Origin: Nocardia niigatensis NBRC 100131 | Lineage (GTDB): Bacteria; Actinomycetota; Actinomycetes; Mycobacteriales; Mycobacteriaceae | Length of the DNA stretch: 64,000 nt | Direction of reading: 5' to 3' | Assembly (NCBI RefSeq): GCF_000308655.1 | Contig: NZ_BAGC01000035.1 | Location: forward strand, 186,001-250,000 | Part shown: positions 29,422 through 39,728 of the stretch, piece by piece | How the letters are laid out: the number at the start of each line of letters is the position of its first letter | How positions within the stretch are numbered: position 1 is the stretch's first letter | Notes under the pieces: model-generated | What the model saw: only the letters and a program-made list of their open reading frames with translations | Told to the model about the DNA's origin: nothing | Databases searched by the model: none | Translations under genes and position numbers: made by a program

Positions 29422-29901
29422 TCAGGCGGCGACGACCGTGGCGTAGTTGTCGCGCAGGGCGGGCCAGCCGCCCGGGGAGCCGACGGCCTCGCGCATGGAT
29501 TCCCATCCGGGGCCGTGGTTTTCGAAGCCGGAGTGCACGAGGGTGACGGTGGTGTGGCCGGCGTCGAGGGCGGTGAAGGTGACATCGACGCGGCTGGTGC
29601 GGGCCGGGTCGGATTCGGGTTTCCAGCTCAGGTCGATGTCCCAGGAGAAGGCGAAGTGGGTGTCGGGGTTCCACACCAGCACCCGGCCCCAGGGGCATTC
29701 GGTGCCGTCGGCTTCGCGGCCGTAGAGCCGGCCGCCGAGGTGGGGTTCGACGACGGCTTCGGCCAGCGGGCCCGAGCCGATGTGGTGTTCGCGCGGCCAC
29801 CAGCTGTCCATGCCGGTGGTGAAGACGCGGTAGGCGTGGTCGATGGGGGCGTCGACGGTGAATTCGACGGTGACCGCATGGGGGTCGGGCTGCGGGGTCA
29901 T
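29422..29901 (-). CDS. AHSA1/SRPBCC-domain protein
   Basis: 159 residues of the START-like AHSA1 group: VTVEFTVDAPIDHAYRVFTT, then WWPREHHIG, GGRLYGREADGTE, WGRVLVWNPDTHFAFSW and a C-terminal GGWPALRDNYA helix. These proteins have a deep hydrophobic ligand pocket and are very often encoded after an ArsR-type regulator, as here. ATG at 29901 overlaps the arsR stop by four bases. The ligand is unknown. It is cytoplasmic, with no signal sequence. Confidence 0.88.
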   Translation of the reverse strand: MTPQPDPHAVTVEFTVDAPIDHAYRVFTTGMDSWWPREHHIGSGPLAEAVVEPHLGGRLYGREADGTECPWGRVLVWNPDTHFAFSWDIDLSWKPESDPARTSRVDVTFTALDAGHTTVTLVHSGFENHGPGWESMREAVGSPGGWPALRDNYATVVAA

Positions 29902-30233
29902 GGCTGCTCCTGGGTGTCGTTGAGCTGGGCTTGGCGGTTGACTTCGTCGCGGAAGGCCGACAGCGCTGTCGACCAGAAGTGGGTGAAGTACGCGCGTAGC
30001 GCGTCGATGCCACGGGGGTCGAGCCGGTAGACGCGCCGGGTGCCGATGGCTTCGTCGCGGACCAGTCCCGCCTGTTTGAGCACTTTGAGGTGCTGGGAGA
30101 CGGCGGGGCGGGAGACGGGAAGCTCCTGGGCGAGTTCGCCGACCGCGCACGGGCCCCGGCCGAGGCGTTCGAAGATGGCTCGCCGGGTCGGGTCACCGAG
30201 GGCGTCGAGAGCGGCGCTTTGGTAAGTACCCAC
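29898..30233 (-). CDS. ArsR-family winged-helix regulator
   Basis: 111 residues. The winged helix is clear: LDALGDPTRRAIFERLGRGP, then VGELAQELPVSRPAVSQHLK, LKQAGLVRDE and RRVYRLDP. The Cys pairs of metal sensors are absent, so this belongs to the non-metal SdpR/AHSA1-linked group. It is followed by its AHSA1 partner with a four-base overlap. A palindrome a few bases upstream of the ATG fits autoregulation. Confidence 0.9.
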   Translation of the reverse strand: MGTYQSAALDALGDPTRRAIFERLGRGPCAVGELAQELPVSRPAVSQHLKVLKQAGLVRDEAIGTRRVYRLDPRGIDALRAYFTHFWSTALSAFRDEVNRQAQLNDTQEQP

Positions 30234-30237
30234 GAAC

Positions 30238-30255
30238 CGTAAGTTTACGCTTACG
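30238..30255. promoter_or_regulatory. Inverted repeat CGTAAG-N6-CTTACG upstream of arsR
   Basis: A perfect 6+6+6 inverted repeat begins 5 bases upstream of the arsR start codon, in a short AT-richer patch. The placement suggests an ArsR operator overlapping a leaderless or short-leader promoter. Confidence 0.5.
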
Positions 30256-30388
30256 CAATGGTGGGTGGAAGGGGTCGCGGCGAATGCGTTGGTGGGGGTG
30301 CGAAGTCGGCATCGCCCTTCCCGTGGCCGGTCGGCGGCCGATACCGTGAGGGCCGGATGGAATGGACCCTCAGCGAGGAGGTGGGGCC

Positions 30389-33300
30389 GTGAGCGCGGTG
30401 CCGGGTTTCGAACGTTTGCGCGCGGTGGTCGGGCGGGGACTCGAGCGGGGTGCGTCGGTGCGCAAACAGTTGCGGGCGGGTGGGCGGCTGGTCGACAGCG
30501 TGCGCCGGGATCCGCGCATCGCCCGGGAGCTGATCGCCGGGTTGACCGGTCACGGCGCGACCGCCTCCGAGGCGACGGCGGTCCCGGTCGAGCACGCGGT
30601 GCCGGCGGGGCTGGCCGACTACACGCGCACCGCGCACGCTCATCAGGATCTCGGGACCGGCCCGGCGGCGACGCTGGCGTATCTGGCGCAGCTGCAACGA
30701 CTTCCGGAGTGGGTGGTGTTCCATGCGGGCTGGCTCGGGGAGGCGCCGGGGGCCGCGGCGGTGGGTGTGGAGTACACGCAGGTGGCCAAGTTCATGGGGA
30801 TCCCGGCGGATGTGGCGTGGACGGTGAGCGAGGTCGGCGACAGCGGGCTGGCGATGCGCGGGCACGGGCCGCAGGGTTTGGGTCTGGGGTTGTGGATCAC
30901 GGTGGCGCCCAACGGGTCCGGGTCGAGGGTGTACATCGATGCCGGTCTGTCGGGGCAGCCGATCGACGGGCCTCTGGGCGCCACGGTGGCGCGGGCGCTC
31001 GGGGACGCGCTGCGTGATTCCCTGGCGGCGCTGCCCGCGGCGGTGGCGGCGGCCAAGTCGGACTCGACGGGGCGGGCCGCGCACAAGGCGGTGCGGCACC
31101 GGGCGTCGGGGACGCTGCTGGCGCCGGGGACGCCGGTACTGGTGGGTGTCGGGCAGGTGGTGCAGCGCACCCCGGACCCGTCCTTCGGCGATCCCGCGCA
31201 ACTGGCGGTGCGGGCATTGCGTGCGGCGGCCGCCGACACGGGTGCGGGGGAAGCGTTGCTGGCGCGGGCGGATGCGGTGTTCGCGGTGGCGCCGACGTCG
31301 TGGCAGTACCGGGATCTGGGTGCGCTGGTGGCGCGCGCGGTAGGGGCGGGCGCGGCACAGACGGTGCAGTCGAGCCCGTTCGGCGGTGACGGCGGGCAGC
31401 TGCTGCTCAACGAGGCGGCCGCGGCGATCGCGGCCGGCGACTACGACGTGGTGCTGGTGACCGGCGCGGAGGCCGGGGCCACGCAGGCCGCGGCGCAGCG
31501 CGCCGGGGTCGAATTGGATTGGCCGGTGCAGGATCCGGCGGTGGCGCCGACGCGGACGGTGGGGATCGACAAGGCGGCCAACAATGCGGCCGAGTCGGCG
31601 GCCGGGCTGCAGGCGCCGATCAATATGTACGCGCTGCTGGAGTCGGCCAACCGGGGCCGGCTGGGTCGCACCCCGGCCGAGCACGCGGCGGCGGTGGCCG
31701 AGTTGTGGTCGCGGTTCTCGGCGGTGGCGGCGGCCAATCCGAATGCCTGGCAGCCGCAGGAGTTCCCGGCCACGGAGATCGCGGCGGTGACCGAGTCCAA
31801 CCGCATGATCTCGGCGCCCTACACCAAGCTCGAGTGCGCGAATCTGACCGTGGACATGGCCTCGGGCATCATCGTGACCAGTGCGGCGGCCGCGGAGGCG
31901 GCGGGCATCCCGCAGGAGAAGTGGGTGTTCCTGCACGCGGGCGCCTCGGGCACCGACGAGTGGTTCGTCAGTGAGCGCACCGAATTGGCGGCCTCGCCCG
32001 CGATCCGCGCGCTGGGTGCGGCGGTGTTCGAGCATGCGGGTATCACCGCCGACGCGCTGACCCATGTCGATCTGTACGCGTGCTTCCCGGTGGCGGTGCA
32101 GATCGCGGCCCGTGAGCTGGGTCTGCCGACCGAGGATCCGAAGCGGCCGTTGTCGGTGACCGGTGGCCTGACCTTCGGTGGCGGGCCGGGCAACAACTAT
32201 GGCGGTCACGCGGTGGCGACCCTGGTGCAGCGGTTGCGCGCCGAACCGGAATCCTTCGGTCTGGCAACGTCTCTGGGCTGGTATCTGACCAAGCACGCTC
32301 TCGGGGTGTACTCGGCGACCCCGCCCCGGCAGCCCTACCGGCATCTGACCCCGGTCATCGAGCATCCTCCGGCCCGCCCGGCCCGCACCGGATACAGCGG
32401 GGAGGCGGTGGTGGAGGCCTACACGCTGCCCTACGGTCGCGACGGCCGGCCGGAGGCGGCGATCATGAGCGTGCTGACTCCCCAGGGCGAGCGAGTGCTG
32501 GTGCGCTCCACCGATTCCGCGCTGCTGCGCGCCCTCACCGAGGACGACTGGCTGCACCTGCCGGTCACCGTGGACGGCGACACGATCCGCCCGGTACGCG
32601 CACAGGTCACCGAATCCGACTCCGGTACAGGCGAATCCGGTACCGACCCGGCGACCGCCGAGGCCGGCGCGGCGCAATCGGAGGCGGCCGACACCGGTGC
32701 GCCCGCTGCGGCTGCTGCGGCGTCGCCGGTGGCTGCGGGGCTGAGCACGGCGGGTCTGGCCCGGGTCGAGCTGCCGCCTCCGCCGCCCGCGCCGGTGCTC
32801 ATCGAGCGCCGCGGCCACGTCATGATCATCACGATCAATCGGCCTCATGCCCGCAATGCGATCAATCTGGCCGCCGCGCTGGGCCTGGAGCGGGCGATCG
32901 ACGCCTACGAGGCCGACGCCAACGCGCGCATCGCCATTCTCACCGGCGCGGGTGGGTATTTCAGTGCCGGTATGGATCTCAAGGCGGCCTCGCGCGGCGA
33001 GATGCCCATCACCGAGAAGCGCGGCATCCTCGGCATCGTCTCCGAGCCGCCGCGCAAGCCGCTCATCGCGGCCGTGGAGGGCCCGGCGCTGGCCGGTGGC
33101 TGCGAGCTGGCGCTGACCGCGGATCTGATTGTCGCGGCCAGTGATTCGATCTTCGGCATCCCGGAGGTCAAGCGCGGCCTGGTCGCCGTCGGCGGTGGCG
33201 TGCTGCGCCTATCCCAGCGCATCCCGCGCGCTCTCGCCATGGAGCTGGCGCTGACCGGTGACCCGATCACCGCGGCCCGGGCCGCCGAGATCGGCCTGAT

Positions 33301-33547
33301 CAATGCGGTCGCCGAGCCTGGCCAGGCGCTGGAGGCGGCGCTGGCGCTGGCCGAGCGGATCGCGGTGAACGCCCCGTTGAGCATCGATGCCAGCAAGCAG
33401 ATCATCGAGCAGGCCCCGGACTGGTCGGTGGGCGAGGCGTTCGCCAAACAGGGTCAGGTCGCCGCCGCGGCGCTCTCGTCGCAGGACGCGGGCGAGGGCA
33501 TGCGCGCGTTCGTCGAGAAGCGTCCGCCGGTGTGGCAGGGCCGCTGA
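30389..33547 (+). CDS. Three-module fusion: SRPBCC-like domain, thiolase-like domain, crotonase
   Basis: 1052 residues. Residues about 1-230 contain a SRPBCC-like segment (FMGIPADVAWTVSEVGDSGL, GLWITVAP, a DGPLGATVARALGDALRDSL helix). Residues about 245-655 are thiolase-like (GTPVLVGVGQVVQRTP, ESNRMISAPYTKLECANLTV, DLYACFPVAVQIAARELGL, GGLTFGGGPGNNYGGHA). The usual N-terminal nucleophile Cys is not seen: the position reads SSPFGGDGGQ. Residues about 665-740 look like the small beta domain that follows such thiolases. After an Ala/Thr/Ser/Pro linker, residues about 800-1052 are a crotonase (FSAGMDLKAASRG, GPALAGGCELALTADL, FGIPEVKRGL). GTG at 30389 follows GGAGG by seven bases. A multi-step acyl-CoA role is inferred; in relatives I know, these modules are separate proteins. 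Confidence 0.88.
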   Translation: MSAVPGFERLRAVVGRGLERGASVRKQLRAGGRLVDSVRRDPRIARELIAGLTGHGATASEATAVPVEHAVPAGLADYTRTAHAHQDLGTGPAATLAYLAQLQRLPEWVVFHAGWLGEAPGAAAVGVEYTQVAKFMGIPADVAWTVSEVGDSGLAMRGHGPQGLGLGLWITVAPNGSGSRVYIDAGLSGQPIDGPLGATVARALGDALRDSLAALPAAVAAAKSDSTGRAAHKAVRHRASGTLLAPGTPVLVGVGQVVQRTPDPSFGDPAQLAVRALRAAAADTGAGEALLARADAVFAVAPTSWQYRDLGALVARAVGAGAAQTVQSSPFGGDGGQLLLNEAAAAIAAGDYDVVLVTGAEAGATQAAAQRAGVELDWPVQDPAVAPTRTVGIDKAANNAAESAAGLQAPINMYALLESANRGRLGRTPAEHAAAVAELWSRFSAVAAANPNAWQPQEFPATEIAAVTESNRMISAPYTKLECANLTVDMASGIIVTSAAAAEAAGIPQEKWVFLHAGASGTDEWFVSERTELAASPAIRALGAAVFEHAGITADALTHVDLYACFPVAVQIAARELGLPTEDPKRPLSVTGGLTFGGGPGNNYGGHAVATLVQRLRAEPESFGLATSLGWYLTKHALGVYSATPPRQPYRHLTPVIEHPPARPARTGYSGEAVVEAYTLPYGRDGRPEAAIMSVLTPQGERVLVRSTDSALLRALTEDDWLHLPVTVDGDTIRPVRAQVTESDSGTGESGTDPATAEAGAAQSEAADTGAPAAAAAASPVAAGLSTAGLARVELPPPPPAPVLIERRGHVMIITINRPHARNAINLAAALGLERAIDAYEADANARIAILTGAGGYFSAGMDLKAASRGEMPITEKRGILGIVSEPPRKPLIAAVEGPALAGGCELALTADLIVAASDSIFGIPEVKRGLVAVGGGVLRLSQRIPRALAMELALTGDPITAARAAEIGLINAVAEPGQALEAALALAERIAVNAPLSIDASKQIIEQAPDWSVGEAFAKQGQVAAAALSSQDAGEGMRAFVEKRPPVWQGR

Positions 33548-33586: not shown

Positions 33587-33703
33587 GCCTGCTCGGTGCC
33601 GTGAGCGGGCCGGTGCGGTGAATGCGGTTCATGGGTAGAGAAATTCGACAGTCACGTCCGGTCGTATGCGAGTGCGCGGCCGGTTCTGCGAGGGAGTATG
33701 GGC

Positions 33704-34612
33704 ATGCCGATCGATGGTCCTGATACGCGGACGCTGACGTTGTGCCGCGACGGTCTGGAGTTGTCGGCCCGTCGTGTCGGTCCGGAGGACGCGCCGCTGG
33801 TGGTGTTGTTGCACGGGTTTCCGGATACGCCGCATACGTGGGACGGGCTGATCCCGCGTCTGGTGGAGGCCGGGTATCAGGTGCTGGCGCCGTGGTTGCG
33901 CGGGTACACGCCGGGATCGGCGTCACGGGCGGCGCGCTACGACCTGATGGCGGTGAGTGCGGATGTGGCGGCCTGGCATGCGGAGCTGGGTGCGCCGCGG
34001 GCGCATCTGGTGGGGCACGACTGGGGTGCGTTCGTGGCGATGGTTCTGGCCAAGCAGGATCCGGGGCGGTGGGAGTCGCTGACGCTGCTGGCGATCCCGC
34101 CGTTCGGGGGCGGGGTGGCGGCGGGGATGTGGCGATACCTGCCGCGGCAGATGGTGTTGTCGTCGTATATCCCGGTGATGCAGTCGAGGTTGTCGCCGCG
34201 GCTGCTGACGCGGCGGGATGCGGGGTTCGTGCGGGCGTTGTGGCGGCGCTGGTCGCCGGGGTGGGAGTTCAGCGAGGACGAGTTCGCGCCCACCGCGGCC
34301 GTTTTCACCGATCCGACGATGGCGTGGGCGACCACACGGTATTACCGGTCGTTGTTCACGGTGCAGCGCAGGGCGACTCGTGAGTTCAGCGAGATCCTGA
34401 TGGCCGAGCCCGCGCCGCTGCCGACGCTGGCGCTGGCGGGGCGACGCGATGGCTGCATGTCGCCGGATTTGCAGCGCGTCCTGGCAGAGCATGCACAAGT
34501 GCGGCACGCGCAGCTGCCCGATTGTGGGCATTTCCTGCAGGCGGAACGCCCGGACGCCGTGGCGGAGTTGCTGTTACCGCATCTGCGGGCGGCAGGCACG
34601 AACGCCGGCTGA
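33704..34612 (+). CDS. Alpha/beta hydrolase, epoxide hydrolase-like
   Basis: 302 residues. Seen are VVLLHGFPDTPHTWDG with the HGxP oxyanion motif, VGHDWGAFVAM with a nucleophilic Asp as in epoxide hydrolases (not Ser), RYYRS in the cap region with a possible ring-opening Tyr, GRRDGCM with the acid, and CGHFLQAERP with the His. These favour an epoxide hydrolase or haloalkane dehalogenase-type reaction. The ATG at 33704 is preferred over 33698 because AGGGAG then has a seven-base spacing. It stands alone after a terminator. The substrate is unknown. Confidence 0.85.
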   Translation: MPIDGPDTRTLTLCRDGLELSARRVGPEDAPLVVLLHGFPDTPHTWDGLIPRLVEAGYQVLAPWLRGYTPGSASRAARYDLMAVSADVAAWHAELGAPRAHLVGHDWGAFVAMVLAKQDPGRWESLTLLAIPPFGGGVAAGMWRYLPRQMVLSSYIPVMQSRLSPRLLTRRDAGFVRALWRRWSPGWEFSEDEFAPTAAVFTDPTMAWATTRYYRSLFTVQRRATREFSEILMAEPAPLPTLALAGRRDGCMSPDLQRVLAEHAQVRHAQLPDCGHFLQAERPDAVAELLLPHLRAAGTNAG

Positions 34613-37125: not shown

Positions 37126-38952
37126 TCAGGCGGTGGTGTCGGGTTCGTGGACGCGGTCGGCGAGGTCGGGCTGGTACATGCGCTCGATGTCGGCGGCGTA
37201 TTTCTCGGCGATGGGTTTGCGGCGCAGTTTCATGGTGAGGGTGATCTCGTCGCCGCCGGGTTCCCAGAAGGTGGGCAGGATGGTGAAGCGTTTGATCTGT
37301 TCGACGCGTGAGAGTTTCGCGTTGCCGGCCGCGACGCCGCGCGCGATCTCGGCGATGACGCCCTTGTCGGTGGCGAGGGCGGCAGCGGAGGCGTCGGGCA
37401 GGGCGTGCTGGGCGGCGTAGGGTGCGGCGGATTCGGCGTCGAGGACGATGAGGGCGGTGTTGTAGGGGCGGTTGTCGCCGATGGTGGCCAGGGCGCCGAT
37501 GAGCGGGGTGGCGGCTTTGACGGTGTTCTCGATATTGGCCGGGGACATGTTCTTTCCGGCGGAGTTGATGATGAGTTCTTTCTTGCGGTCGACGACGCGC
37601 AGGTAGCCGTCGGCGTCGCAGGTGATGATGTCGCCGGTGGCCAGCCAGCCGTCCGCGTCGAGGGCGTCGGCGGTTTTCTGTGGCTCCTTGCGGTATTCGC
37701 GCATGACCAGCGGCCCGCGCACGAGGAATTCGCCGTCGTCGGCGATCTTGGATTCGAGGCCGGGCAGCAGCCGCCCGACTGTGCCCAGGCGGGCTTCGCC
37801 GGGTGGGGAGACGCTGACGATGCAGGTCAGTTCCGACATGCCCCACACTTCGGAGATGGGGATGCCCAGGCCGAAGAAGAATCCGAGGGTTTCCGGCGGG
37901 ATCGGCGCGGCTCCTGACAGAGCCCATTTGAGTTGGTCCAGGCCAAGTTTCGCGCGCAGCGCCGACAACACCGCGGCGTCGGCTCTATCCCATTCGGCGG
38001 CGAGGGCGTCGTCGAGGGGCACTCCGGCCAGCTGGGCGGCGGCCTTGCGGGCGGCGACCTCGAGCGCCCAGCCGAGGGCGGCCCTGCGGGCGGGGTCGGT
38101 TTCGGCGCCGGCCGAATATTCCACGGCCGCTTTGAGTTTCTCCCACACCCGTGGCACCGCACCCCAGATGGTGGGGTGCACGTCGGCGAGCGCGGCGGGC
38201 AGCTGGGTGCGGTCGGGGACCACGGTGATCTGGGTGCCGAAGTATTGGTGCAGGTAGAGGTTGGTGACGCGGTCGGCCATGTGCGCGGTCGGCAGGAACG
38301 AGGTGATGCGGTCACCGAATTCGACGGGCATGACCGAGGCGTAGGCGCGGCATTCGAAGCTGAGGTTGGCGTGGGAGATCTCCACGCCCTTGGGGTTTCC
38401 GGTGGTGCCGGAGGTGTAGCAGAGGGTGACGATGTCGTCGGGGCCGATGGCCTGCCAGGTGGCGTCGAAGTCGAAGTCGCTGCGGCCCAGCTGGATGAGC
38501 TGCGCGACGGTGAGCGTGCCGGGGGTTGGCGCGTCGACGCACACGATGGTCTCGATGGGCACTCCGCAGGCGCGGATGCGGTCCACGTATTGGGCTTCGC
38601 ACAGCACGATCCGGTTGCCGGCGTTGCTGAACACGTAGTGCAGTTGTTCGGCCGAGAGCGTGTTGTACACCGAGAACGAGGTGGCGCCGGTGTGCTGGGC
38701 GCCGACCTCGAGGGGGTAGAACTCGACGCGGTTGGCCATCATGAACGCCACGGTGTCCCCGCGCCCGATTCCCAGTGCGGCCAGGCCCGCCGCGACCTCC
38801 CGCACCTGGGTGGCGTAGTCACGCCAGGTCAGTGTCCGGGTGCCGCCGATCGAGCGGACCGCGATCGCGTCGGGGTCGATCGCGGCGGTCGCCTGGAACG
38901 CGGCGGGGGACGTATTCGGTTCGCTCATCACTGTTCTCGATCCACTCACCAT
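37126..38952 (-). CDS. Long-chain fatty acid-CoA ligase (second FadD15-like copy)
   Basis: 608 residues. P-loop YTSGTTGNPKGVEISHANLS, A5 motif VWGMSELTC, WLATGDIITCDADGY, VVDRKKELIINSAGKNMSPA and a C-terminal KLRRKPIAEKYA with the catalytic Lys are intact. It shares block order and length with the enzyme at 10781-12610, including FDFDATWQAIGPDDIVTL, so the two are paralogues. It activates fatty or related carboxylic acids as CoA thioesters. ATG at 38952 has GAGAAGG five bases upstream; ATG 38928 is an alternative. It lies downstream of a tetR gene and a TetR-like remnant on the same strand. Confidence 0.9.
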   Translation of the reverse strand: MVSGSRTVMSEPNTSPAAFQATAAIDPDAIAVRSIGGTRTLTWRDYATQVREVAAGLAALGIGRGDTVAFMMANRVEFYPLEVGAQHTGATSFSVYNTLSAEQLHYVFSNAGNRIVLCEAQYVDRIRACGVPIETIVCVDAPTPGTLTVAQLIQLGRSDFDFDATWQAIGPDDIVTLCYTSGTTGNPKGVEISHANLSFECRAYASVMPVEFGDRITSFLPTAHMADRVTNLYLHQYFGTQITVVPDRTQLPAALADVHPTIWGAVPRVWEKLKAAVEYSAGAETDPARRAALGWALEVAARKAAAQLAGVPLDDALAAEWDRADAAVLSALRAKLGLDQLKWALSGAAPIPPETLGFFFGLGIPISEVWGMSELTCIVSVSPPGEARLGTVGRLLPGLESKIADDGEFLVRGPLVMREYRKEPQKTADALDADGWLATGDIITCDADGYLRVVDRKKELIINSAGKNMSPANIENTVKAATPLIGALATIGDNRPYNTALIVLDAESAAPYAAQHALPDASAAALATDKGVIAEIARGVAAGNAKLSRVEQIKRFTILPTFWEPGGDEITLTMKLRRKPIAEKYAADIERMYQPDLADRVHEPDTTA

Positions 38953-39017
38953 CGAAGCCTTCTCAGACGGTAAGGCGCGAGGTGGGTGTCGCGGGCCCGA
39001 ATGCGGGAAGGCCGTTC

Positions 39018-39080
39018 GCACGGTGTTCGGGTCCAGGCCGGGGTGGGTCGTCGTCGCCGGGCAGGCAGTCGGCGAGTTCG
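39018..39080 (-). repeat. Partial copy of the neighbouring tetR gene
   Basis: Bases 39018-39043 are identical to 39278-39303 inside the tetR gene at 39147-39728, and similarity continues with small gaps to about 39080 (matching about 39339). On the minus strand both encode PGLDPNTV. The segment lies between fadD and tetR and appears to be what is left of a second TetR gene or a local duplication. Confidence 0.65.
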
Positions 39081-39146
39081 CTGCTGTTCGACTCGCCGGC
39101 GCTGATGCTCGGGGTCGGGCTCGCCGCAATGTGAAGCGGCGCAGGC

Positions 39147-39728
39147 TTATTCGGCGGGCGGGCGGGTGCCGAGGATGCCGTAGAGCAGCAGGTCTTCGAG
39201 GGAGGCGGCGAAGCCGTCGAGGTCGTCGATATCGCGGATGCACATGGCGAACAGGGCCGCGCCGGCGATGGTGTCGAGCACGGTGTTCGGGTCCAGGCCG
39301 GGGCGGTCGCCGGTGCCGGGCAGGTAGCCGGCGAGTTCGTCGCGGGTGGGGGTGTCCAGGCGGGCGGACAGTTTCTCGTACAGGCCGGAGTCCTCGCGCA
39401 TCTCGGCCATCAATCCGGGCATGGCCGTGCGGGTTTCGGCGGACCCGAACAGCTGGATGGTGCCGCGGATGACCTTGCGCACCTCGGCCGGGAGATCGGG
39501 TGCGACGACCGCGGAGCCGACGTCGGGGAACACGGCCTGGGCGATGAGGTGGGCCTTGGAGGGCCAGCGCCGGTAGATGGCGGGGCGGCTGACGCCGGCG
39601 CGGGCGGCGATGGCGTCGATGGAGGTGGCGGCGTAGCCCTGTTCGACGAGCAGCGCGCGGGCGGCGTCGAGGACCGCGGCGTCCACCGCGGGGTCGCGGT
39701 GCGGGCCCAGCCGGTGGCGTGTGGTCAC
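39147..39728 (-). CDS. TetR-family regulator, divergent from the SDR operon
   Basis: 193 residues. HTH: AVLDAARALLVEQGYAATSI, then IAARAGVSRPAIYRRWPSKA. The C-terminal domain resembles the TetR_C_33/AcrR groups (VRKVIRGTIQLFGSAETRTA, a late ALFAMCIRDIDDLDG). The promoter region shared with the SDR gene holds two copies of a 15-bp GTTACA-N3-TGTAAC site, so this protein probably represses both directions. fadD follows on the same strand about 200 bases downstream, and an acyl-CoA or steroid ligand would fit the neighbours. Confidence 0.88.
   Translation of the reverse strand: MTTRHRLGPHRDPAVDAAVLDAARALLVEQGYAATSIDAIAARAGVSRPAIYRRWPSKAHLIAQAVFPDVGSAVVAPDLPAEVRKVIRGTIQLFGSAETRTAMPGLMAEMREDSGLYEKLSARLDTPTRDELAGYLPGTGDRPGLDPNTVLDTIAGAALFAMCIRDIDDLDGFAASLEDLLLYGILGTRPPAE

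What the first reader, a model, noticed from the sequence alone, without database searches (positions are those of the whole stretch)
30389..33547. Natural fusion of SRPBCC-like, thiolase-like and crotonase modules in one 1052-residue protein
The frame is open throughout, the ribosome-binding site is good and each module keeps its family blocks. Joined this way they suggest channelling of an acyl-CoA intermediate. The thiolase-like part lacks the usual N-terminal Cys (SSPFGGDGGQ), so it may not be a classical thiolase. I know of no described pathway that uses this architecture.
Basis: partly seen in the sequence, partly recalled or inferred. Interest (0 to 1): 0.72.

Follow-up and report, generated by a model that had tools for sequence, protein, structure and literature searches.

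The report
Fused lipid-binder, thiolase-like and hydratase protein
A Nocardia bacterium joins a lipid-binding domain, a thiolase-like domain of unknown function and a hydratase into one protein; some relatives keep the last two as neighbouring, mostly overlapping genes, which suggests a self-contained water-adding and carbon-carbon-splitting enzyme and gives a testable role for an orphan enzyme family.

Summary
The fusion is real. A 1052-residue frame (30389-33547) encodes an SRPBCC domain (Rv0910/MSMEG_5634 family), a thiolase-like protein type 1 (TLP1) with its extra C-terminal domain, and an EchA1-type crotonase. The same three-module frame recurs in independent assemblies of Nocardia, Antrihabitans, Thermocrispum, Pseudonocardia, Nocardioides, Aeromicrobium and Actinoplanes. 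In other Nocardia TLP and crotonase are adjacent, mostly overlapping genes (22 of 22 loci of that TLP type checked, 21 distinct), seldom together with the fused form in one genome. TLP1 has had a crystal structure but no function since 2012; the protein studied lacked thiolase activity. Its Y-x-C-F motif, invariant in 98 of 98 sequences here, aligns with the catalytic Tyr of the aldolase Ltp2 (YDHF) and matches the Tyr/Cys dyad of the aldolase Sal (YDCY). The extra domain models as an OB-like barrel whose weak matches include the DUF35 partners of those aldolases. The crotonase keeps both catalytic glutamates. Best explanation (inferred, not assayed): a single-chain hydratase plus retro-aldolase for acyl thioesters, SRPBCC holding the acyl chain. 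Substrate unknown; no link to steroid-ring degradation was found. New variant of a known kind; confidence about 0.5.

The parts
30389..33547 (+). three-module fusion gene, 1052 residues, GTG start
   Evidence: same architecture in 44 of the 100 loci classified (loci were chosen for likeness, so not a frequency)
30375..30381 (+). ribosome-binding site GAGGAGG, 7 nt before the GTG
   Evidence: read directly
30635..31036 (+). SRPBCC module (residues 83-216), Rv0910/MSMEG_5634 family
   Evidence: NF047960 102.4 bits; profile match to 7wa9 and 8h0h; Trp108 in 44 of 45
31121..32323 (+). thiolase-fold core of the TLP1 module (residues 245-645)
   Evidence: 4egv E 8.1e-63; VIA Z 41.4 to 4egv over residues 243-736
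31382..31387 (+). Gly332-Gly333 in SSPFGGDGGQ, the stretch that holds the nucleophilic Cys in classical thiolases
   Evidence: MsTLP1 has Gly102 there (PMC3406046 section 12)
32075..32083 (+). Tyr563-x-Cys565, proposed aldolase dyad (YACF motif)
   Evidence: both invariant in 98 of 98 loci that reach the column, of 100; Tyr563 aligns with Tyr294 and Cys565 with His296 of YDHF in 6ok1
32324..32602 (+). TLP1_add_C domain (residues 646-738), OB-like barrel
   Evidence: PF18313; model pLDDT 92.8; weak structure matches
32603..32788 (+). linker (residues 739-800), low model confidence at 740-782, much longer than in nearly all relatives
32795..33544 (+). EchA1-type crotonase module (residues 803-1052) with Glu906 and Glu926
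   Evidence: NF006100 355 bits; 59% to 5kjp; Glu columns
33698..34612 (+). alpha/beta hydrolase gene next downstream, present in the window and 2 other Nocardia loci; belonging to the system is uncertain

Best explanation
A single-chain hydratase and retro-aldolase acting on acyl thioesters. Proposed steps: the SRPBCC domain holds the hydrophobic acyl chain; the crotonase adds water across a 2,3-double bond (Glu906, Glu926); the TLP1 module then splits the 3-hydroxyacyl thioester between C2 and C3, Tyr563 as base and Cys565 as acid, giving a shortened aldehyde or ketone and acetyl- or propionyl-CoA. The TLP1_add_C barrel is the covalent counterpart of the separate DUF35 domain that steroid aldolases use. 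Shown: the modules, conservation of the fusion, the TLP-crotonase gene pair in fused and split form, absence of the thiolase nucleophile, invariance of Tyr/Cys and conservation of both Glu, thiolase fold and OB-like domain in models. Inferred: the reaction, its direction, order, channelling and the SRPBCC role.
For: Invariant Y-x-C-F in 98 of 98 TLPs. Tyr563 aligns with Tyr294 of YDHF in Ltp2 6ok1, reported there as catalytic base; in Sal the Tyr/Cys pair of YDCY is reported catalytic by mutants (PMC12329534 passages). Gly at the nucleophile position. OB-like C-terminal domain with weak matches to chains of the DUF35-containing complexes 6esq, 9myr and 6ok1. Hydratase partner: fused in 44 of 100 classified loci; overlapping or within 15 nt in 23 of 23 split loci, 22 distinct, with both Glu in 23 of 23; crotonase just upstream of a distant TLP in G328. 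Fused and split forms overlap in 1 of 52 Nocardia genomes, 8.0 expected (kinship not controlled).
Against: No assay. YxCF also resembles the HDCF of SCP2-thiolases, so its Cys may be inherited without this role. The middle residue is Ala or Ser, not Asp. Ltp2's second catalytic Tyr344 aligns with Leu612, and Sal's Gln347/Gln352 were not mapped. Sal itself was not aligned by sequence. Fold alone does not single out aldolases: SCP2-thiolases reach VIA Z 35.6, above Ltp2 35.0 and Sal 34.7. MsTLP1 is a monomer while Sal and Ltp2 are dimers, and its C-terminal domain lies mostly away from the active site (PMC3406046). OB folds are common and the DUF35 matches have E 0.18-0.6. Three of 12 Nocardia genomes without a fused or split-type TLP keep a 64-66% crotonase. 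44 of 100 loci have TLP with no such crotonase in the flank, and L069 is SRPBCC-TLP without it.
Confidence: 0.5

Rival explanations
1. The TLP1 module is a non-catalytic acyl-CoA or acyl-ACP holder; with SRPBCC it feeds a lone crotonase hydratase, so the protein is a substrate-delivering hydratase.
For: MsTLP1 shows no thiolase activity and binds CoA with Kd 0.6 mM (PMC3406046 section 6); MSMEG_5634 carries acyl-AcpM (PMC9014085, abstract and passages).
Against: Strict invariance of Tyr563, Cys565 and His607 in 98 of 98 looks catalytic. One fusion (L069) has SRPBCC-TLP without the crotonase.
Confidence: 0.22
2. The TLP1 module works in the synthetic direction (aldol or Claisen-type condensation, or acyl transfer as in PhlC/MucC), and the crotonase dehydrates the product.
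For: VIA neighbours include PhlABC, MucABC and archaeal thiolase/HMG-CoA synthase complexes; aldol reactions are reversible (established chemistry).
Against: The acylated cysteine that Claisen chemistry needs is absent; the neighbours scanned show no synthase cluster (only part of the genes in the 21 neighbourhoods were scanned).
Confidence: 0.15
3. A beta-oxidation-type protein: hydratase plus ordinary thiolase, as the annotation 'acetyl-CoA acetyltransferase' would imply.
For: The PRK08257 models carry that name.
Against: No nucleophilic Cys and no GHP motif, and a relative is inactive as thiolase; the Pfam scan shows no 3-hydroxyacyl-CoA dehydrogenase module.
Confidence: 0.05
4. Assembly or frameshift artefact joining neighbouring genes.
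For: Adjacent split genes exist in relatives, so an artefact could look like this.
Against: Same fusion in many independent assemblies and several genera, with conserved linker edges, and a second fused copy in the same genome.
Confidence: 0.01

Closest known systems
MsTLP1 (4egv), thiolase-like protein type 1
   Same: thiolase fold plus extra C-terminal barrel, Gly at the nucleophile position, Y-x-C-F motif
   Different: not fused; the fused/split group is a separate branch in the TLP tree (MsTLP1 itself was not in it), with Trp631 where 28 of 42 ungapped stand-alone TLPs, like MsTLP1, have Gly
Sal-Shy and Ltp2-ChsH1-ChsH2 steroid hydratase-aldolase complexes
   Same: thiolase-superfamily aldolase working with a hydratase and a DUF35 (OB-fold) domain; Tyr (and in Sal Cys) in the corresponding motif
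   Different: their hydratases are MaoC type (Shy from the abstract start of PMC11321319 in the listing; ChsH1-ChsH2 recalled) and hydratase and aldolase are separate chains; here a crotonase, a different OB-like domain and one chain, plus SRPBCC
EchA1 / Rv0222 crotonases (5kjp, 6ldz, 3qxi)
   Same: 58-59% identity and the same fold; the fused module is within NF006100
   Different: solved as stand-alone proteins; Rv0222 was not in my tree, but stand-alone crotonases of two genomes of another genus of the family (L172, L173, 58-59%) fall outside the fused/split group
MSMEG_5634 / Rv0910 SRPBCC acyl-AcpM binders (7wa9)
   Same: same family by NF047960; Trp108 aligned with the functionally needed Trp30
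   Different: not fused; acyl-AcpM binding of the fused domain is untested, and the fusion also occurs in taxa without mycolic acids (recalled)

Membership tests
TLP1 (thiolase-like protein type 1) | additional C-terminal domain PF18313 | tested here: met
   47.1 bits against cut-off 26.1
TLP1 (thiolase-like protein type 1) | thiolase fold with nucleophilic Cys replaced by Gly and NEAF replaced by Y[SA]CF | tested here: met
TLP1 (thiolase-like protein type 1) | PRK08257 equivalog score (name given to these proteins by NCBIfam) | tested here: not met
   446 bits against 757 for the best model; related but below the curated cut-off
TLP1 (thiolase-like protein type 1) | monomer, no thiolase activity | not testable with these tools
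   needs purified protein
Classical thiolase | nucleophilic Cys, NEAF or HDCF, GHP and CxG motifs | tested here: not met
   SSPFGGDGG, YACF, GGP and LGW in their places, mapped through the alignment to MsTLP1 (motif roles from PMC3406046)
Sal-type aldolase | catalytic Tyr and Cys of the YDCY motif | tested here: met
   Tyr563 and Cys565 invariant; correspondence inferred through the 6ok1 and 6esq alignments, not through Sal itself
Sal-type aldolase | Asp in the middle of the motif | tested here: not met
   Ala or Ser at residue 564 in 98 of 98
Sal-type aldolase | DUF35 OB-fold partner | tested here: inconclusive
   OB-like covalent domain; weak Foldseek matches to DUF35 chains
Sal-type aldolase | Gln residues activating the Cys; retro-aldol activity | not tested
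   no residue-level superposition available; no assay
Enoyl-CoA hydratase (crotonase), EchA1-like subfamily | NF006100 subfamily score | tested here: met
   355.4 bits against 282
Enoyl-CoA hydratase (crotonase), EchA1-like subfamily | two catalytic glutamates (rat Glu144/Glu164, recalled) | tested here: met
   three-module loci: Glu906 in 43 of 44 (one gap), Glu926 in 44 of 44; split genes 23 of 23 for both; the damaged L097 has Gly at the second position
SRPBCC, Rv0910/MSMEG_5634 family | NF047960 score | tested here: met
   102.4 bits against 100 when residues 1-235 are scanned alone
SRPBCC, Rv0910/MSMEG_5634 family | acyl-AcpM binding | not testable with these tools
   Trp equivalent to Trp30 kept in 44 of 45; binding needs an experiment

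The most novel reading that the evidence does not exclude
TLP1 proteins as a whole are an unrecognised class of acyl-thioester aldolases with a built-in OB domain, and this protein is a complete hydratase-aldolase with its own acyl-chain holder in one chain: a crotonase-based counterpart of the MaoC-based steroid side-chain hydratase-aldolase complexes, serving a non-steroid substrate.
Probability: 0.38. Interest if true: 0.72.

Novelty: new variant of a known kind. Interest (0 to 1): 0.55.

Why it matters
TLP1 proteins have had a structure but no function since 2012, and NCBIfam names their relatives acetyl-CoA acetyltransferase. The fusion and the adjacent gene pairs name a partner enzyme, and the Tyr/Cys motif names a reaction, so the question becomes one assay and two point mutants. 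If right, TLP1 genes, which occur in many actinobacteria and some proteobacteria, are misnamed, and cleaving acyl chains by hydration and retro-aldol instead of thiolysis would be more widespread than the steroid pathways show.

Tried and rejected
Steroid link: HsaD (NF045632) exceeds its cut-off in 13 of 22 genomes that carry the fusion (21; G079 judged by frame length only) or SRPBCC-TLP (1), and in 11 of 11 Nocardia with no TLP match at E 1e-40. So no positive link with steroid-ring degradation; side-chain genes were not tested.

Conserved operon around the fusion: among 21 neighbourhoods (window plus 20 loci) most shared neighbours look like synteny of close kin. One gene family lies divergently beside the fusion in 4 loci (three scanned, all TetR type). 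A family with FAD monooxygenase-like members occurs somewhere in 8 loci (two members scanned). My gene caller missed the fusion in L071-L074. Nothing decisive.

Toxin reading of the SRPBCC domain (NF047960 is named a toxin): not followed, since a section heading of PMC9014085 says that MSMEG_5634 does not function as a toxin. Mycolate-only role: set aside because the fusion occurs in genera without mycolic acids (recalled).

The model came without inter-domain error or coordinates, so inter-module contacts could not be judged. VIA rows cover mainly residues 245-645, so absence of a family there means nothing.
Full report
WHAT IS THERE. The frame 30389-33547 (+) is open for 1052 residues, with a GAGGAGG box 7 nt before the GTG and a start that close relatives share. 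Domain scans give SRPBCC (NF047960 102.4 bits at residues 83-216 when residues 1-235 are scanned alone; PF10604), a TLP1 thiolase-like region (PRK08257 models 245-731, below their cut-offs; PF18313 655-728) and an EchA1-type crotonase (NF006100, 803-1052). By sequence the solved relatives are MsTLP1 4egv for the middle, EchA1-type entries 5kjp/6ldz/3qxi for the end, and Rv1546 8h2d/8h0h and MSMEG_5634 7wa9 for the SRPBCC part. The window lies in an 8.2 Mb genome. Its genus is Nocardia, inferred because contig G018:C100 (852451 bases, same genus) has the length and match position of a named Nocardia cyriacigeorgica contig. A second fused copy, 62-69% identical, lies on another contig of the same genome.

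NOT AN ARTEFACT. Module searches gave 44 SRPBCC-TLP-crotonase in one frame, 1 SRPBCC-TLP (L069), 1 TLP-crotonase (L097, N-terminal part disrupted), 10 split TLP/crotonase neighbours and 44 TLP with no same-strand crotonase above 45% identity in the flank (up to 5 kb, less at contig ends). Two pairs are the same locus twice (L063/L090, L065/L091). Because of how loci were chosen these are not frequencies. Named fused genera: Nocardia, Antrihabitans, Thermocrispum, Pseudonocardia, Nocardioides, Aeromicrobium, Actinoplanes and Amorphoplanes.

SPLIT FORM. In L107-L114, L116 and L117 (nine Nocardia and one Conexibacter), and in 13 of 13 further Nocardia loci (L048-L060), a stand-alone TLP gene is followed on the same strand by a separate crotonase, 62-66% identical to the fused module (51% in Conexibacter). 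In 23 of 23 the crotonase is in another frame; its likely start overlaps the TLP stop in 20 (14 as ATGA, 5 as TGATG, 1 by 8 nt) and follows within 15 nt in 3 (my choice among the printed starts). No SRPBCC hit at E 1e-4 lies in these flanks. G328 has a 55-56% crotonase just upstream of a distant TLP. A distant-type Nocardia TLP, L124, has no such neighbour. So the TLP-crotonase pairing is seen in three arrangements.

EXCLUSION. Reading the rows for its 52 Nocardia genomes (window's included; the list puts the genus first, so I take it as complete): 19 have the fused type, 22 the split type (by 51-54% identity; adjacency verified only in the loci above), one has both (G431), one only a distant TLP (G328), 11 none at E 1e-40. 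Expected overlap under independence is 8.0; hypergeometric P for 1 or fewer is 2.6e-5, without control for kinship. Of 12 genomes without a fused or split-type TLP, 3 keep a 64-66% crotonase (G201, G384, G389), which is against an obligate pair (for G201 and G384 a direct TLP search found only weak matches elsewhere).

TREES. TLP tree, 97 rows, quick search, SH-aLRT only: 43 fused, 9 Nocardia split, L069, L097 and one solo row form one 55-row group (99), apart from 42 rows (41 solo plus the Conexibacter split). The order of the subgroups is unresolved, so whether fusion or split came first is open. Two short rows (L106, L123) and two duplicates were left out. Crotonase tree, 69 rows: fused and split crotonases form one 48-row group (98/94), fused 38 (89/89) against split-type 10 (100/100; it holds the TLP-less L166); two stand-alone crotonases of another genus (L172, L173) and the window genome's paralogue (L185) lie outside. 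The Conexibacter gene is again outside.

THE TLP MODULE. MsTLP1 shows no thiolase activity and binds CoA weakly; it has Gly for the nucleophilic Cys, YSCF for NEAF, GGL for GHP and NGG for CxG (PMC3406046; abstract, passages and sections 6, 12 and 14 seen). In my alignment Tyr563, Cys565, Phe566, Pro567 and His607 are invariant in 98 of 98 loci that reach the columns (2 of 100 are gapped there); Gly333 is invariant in 100 of 100. phmmer aligns YACF with YDHF of Ltp2 6ok1 and with HDCF of an archaeal thiolase 6esq; Ltp2's Tyr344 falls on Leu612. In PMC12329534 (passages) Tyr294 of YDHF is Ltp2's base and Tyr344 its acid, and Tyr302 and Cys304 of YDCY are Sal's base and acid, with mutants reported; that text does not mention TLP1, 4egv or crotonase. 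The paper itself proposes that SLPs may be aldolases. I extend this to TLP1: inference.

STRUCTURE. The full model has pLDDT 81.3 and pTM 0.71. Foldseek ranks 4egv first, then EchA1-type crotonases. VIA gives 4egv Z 41.4 (439 aligned, 2.0 A), 6ok1 Z 35.0 (343, 2.7 A), 9myr Sal-Shy Z 34.7 (350, 3.2 A); archaeal thiolases reach 39.2, SCP2-thiolases 35.6, other thiolases shown 32.7, so the fold does not single out the aldolases. The TLP1_add_C domain alone models at pLDDT 92.8. Its matches are weak (none at E 0.001 or better): 4egv first, then by my reading mostly OB-fold proteins, with chains 6esq_E/F/G, 9myr_B and 6ok1_B/D (DUF35 subunits, by titles and recall) at E 0.18-0.6; VIA best Z 7.8 to 4egv and 6.0-7.4 below it, largely OB folds. 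I read it as OB-like.

THE OTHER MODULES. The crotonase keeps Glu906 (43 of 44, one gap) and Glu926 (44 of 44) in three-module loci and both in 23 of 23 split genes; their roles are recalled from rat crotonase. L097 has Gly at the second position. The SRPBCC Trp108 is kept in 44 of 45 and aligns with the Trp of YHEW in MSMEG_5634, whose W30A mutant is reported unable to form the acyl-AcpM complex (PMC9014085 passages). The stretch between residues 728 and 803 is 75 residues in the window protein against 22-37 in 44 other fused loci; L032 (G001) also has a long one.

MECHANISM AND LIMITS. Best reading: hydration by the crotonase, then retro-aldol cleavage by the TLP module, acyl chain held by SRPBCC. 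The nearest counterparts are the Sal-Shy and Ltp2-ChsH1-ChsH2 complexes. Substrate, direction and channelling are unknown. No steroid-ring link was found. My paper searches (listings only) found no description of this architecture; they cover only the open library.

Noticed in passing
G000:C1:158554-161484 (minus; loci L002, L003): A second full three-module fusion in the window's genome, 62-69% identical; its crotonase groups with those of Nocardia aurantiaca, nova, paucivorans and cyriacigeorgica.
   Followed up: partly
L069 (G084): SRPBCC-TLP fusion of 769 codons with no crotonase hit in the frame or flank.
   Followed up: no
L033 (G025) and L097 (Nocardia crassostreae): Apparently damaged fused genes: one in-frame TAG before the crotonase in L033; in L097 the N-terminal part is disrupted and the second catalytic Glu is Gly.
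   Followed up: partly
window 29898-30233 (-) and 30239-30254: A divergent ArsR-type regulator beside a short inverted repeat GTAAG-N6-CTTAC seen by eye; the gene had no homologue among the genes called in 20 other fused neighbourhoods, and the repeat may be chance.
   Followed up: no
window 32603-32788: The linker before the crotonase is long: 75 residues (728 to 803) against 22-37 in 44 other fused loci; L032 also has a long one. It is rich in Ala, Ser, Thr and acidic residues.
   Followed up: no
window 37126-39243 (-) and 33698-34612 (+): FadD11-type fatty acid-CoA ligase (1045 bits, cut-off 950) and an alpha/beta hydrolase near the fusion, in the same order in L077 and L078.
   Followed up: no
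L048-L060, L107-L117: 13 of 23 split loci also show a second, divergently transcribed crotonase about 30-35% identical just upstream of the TLP gene (flanks differ in length).
   Followed up: no
L166 (G201), L193 (G389), L194 (G384): Split-type crotonases at 64-66% in genomes with no TLP match at E 1e-40: orphaned partners or a second role.
   Followed up: partly
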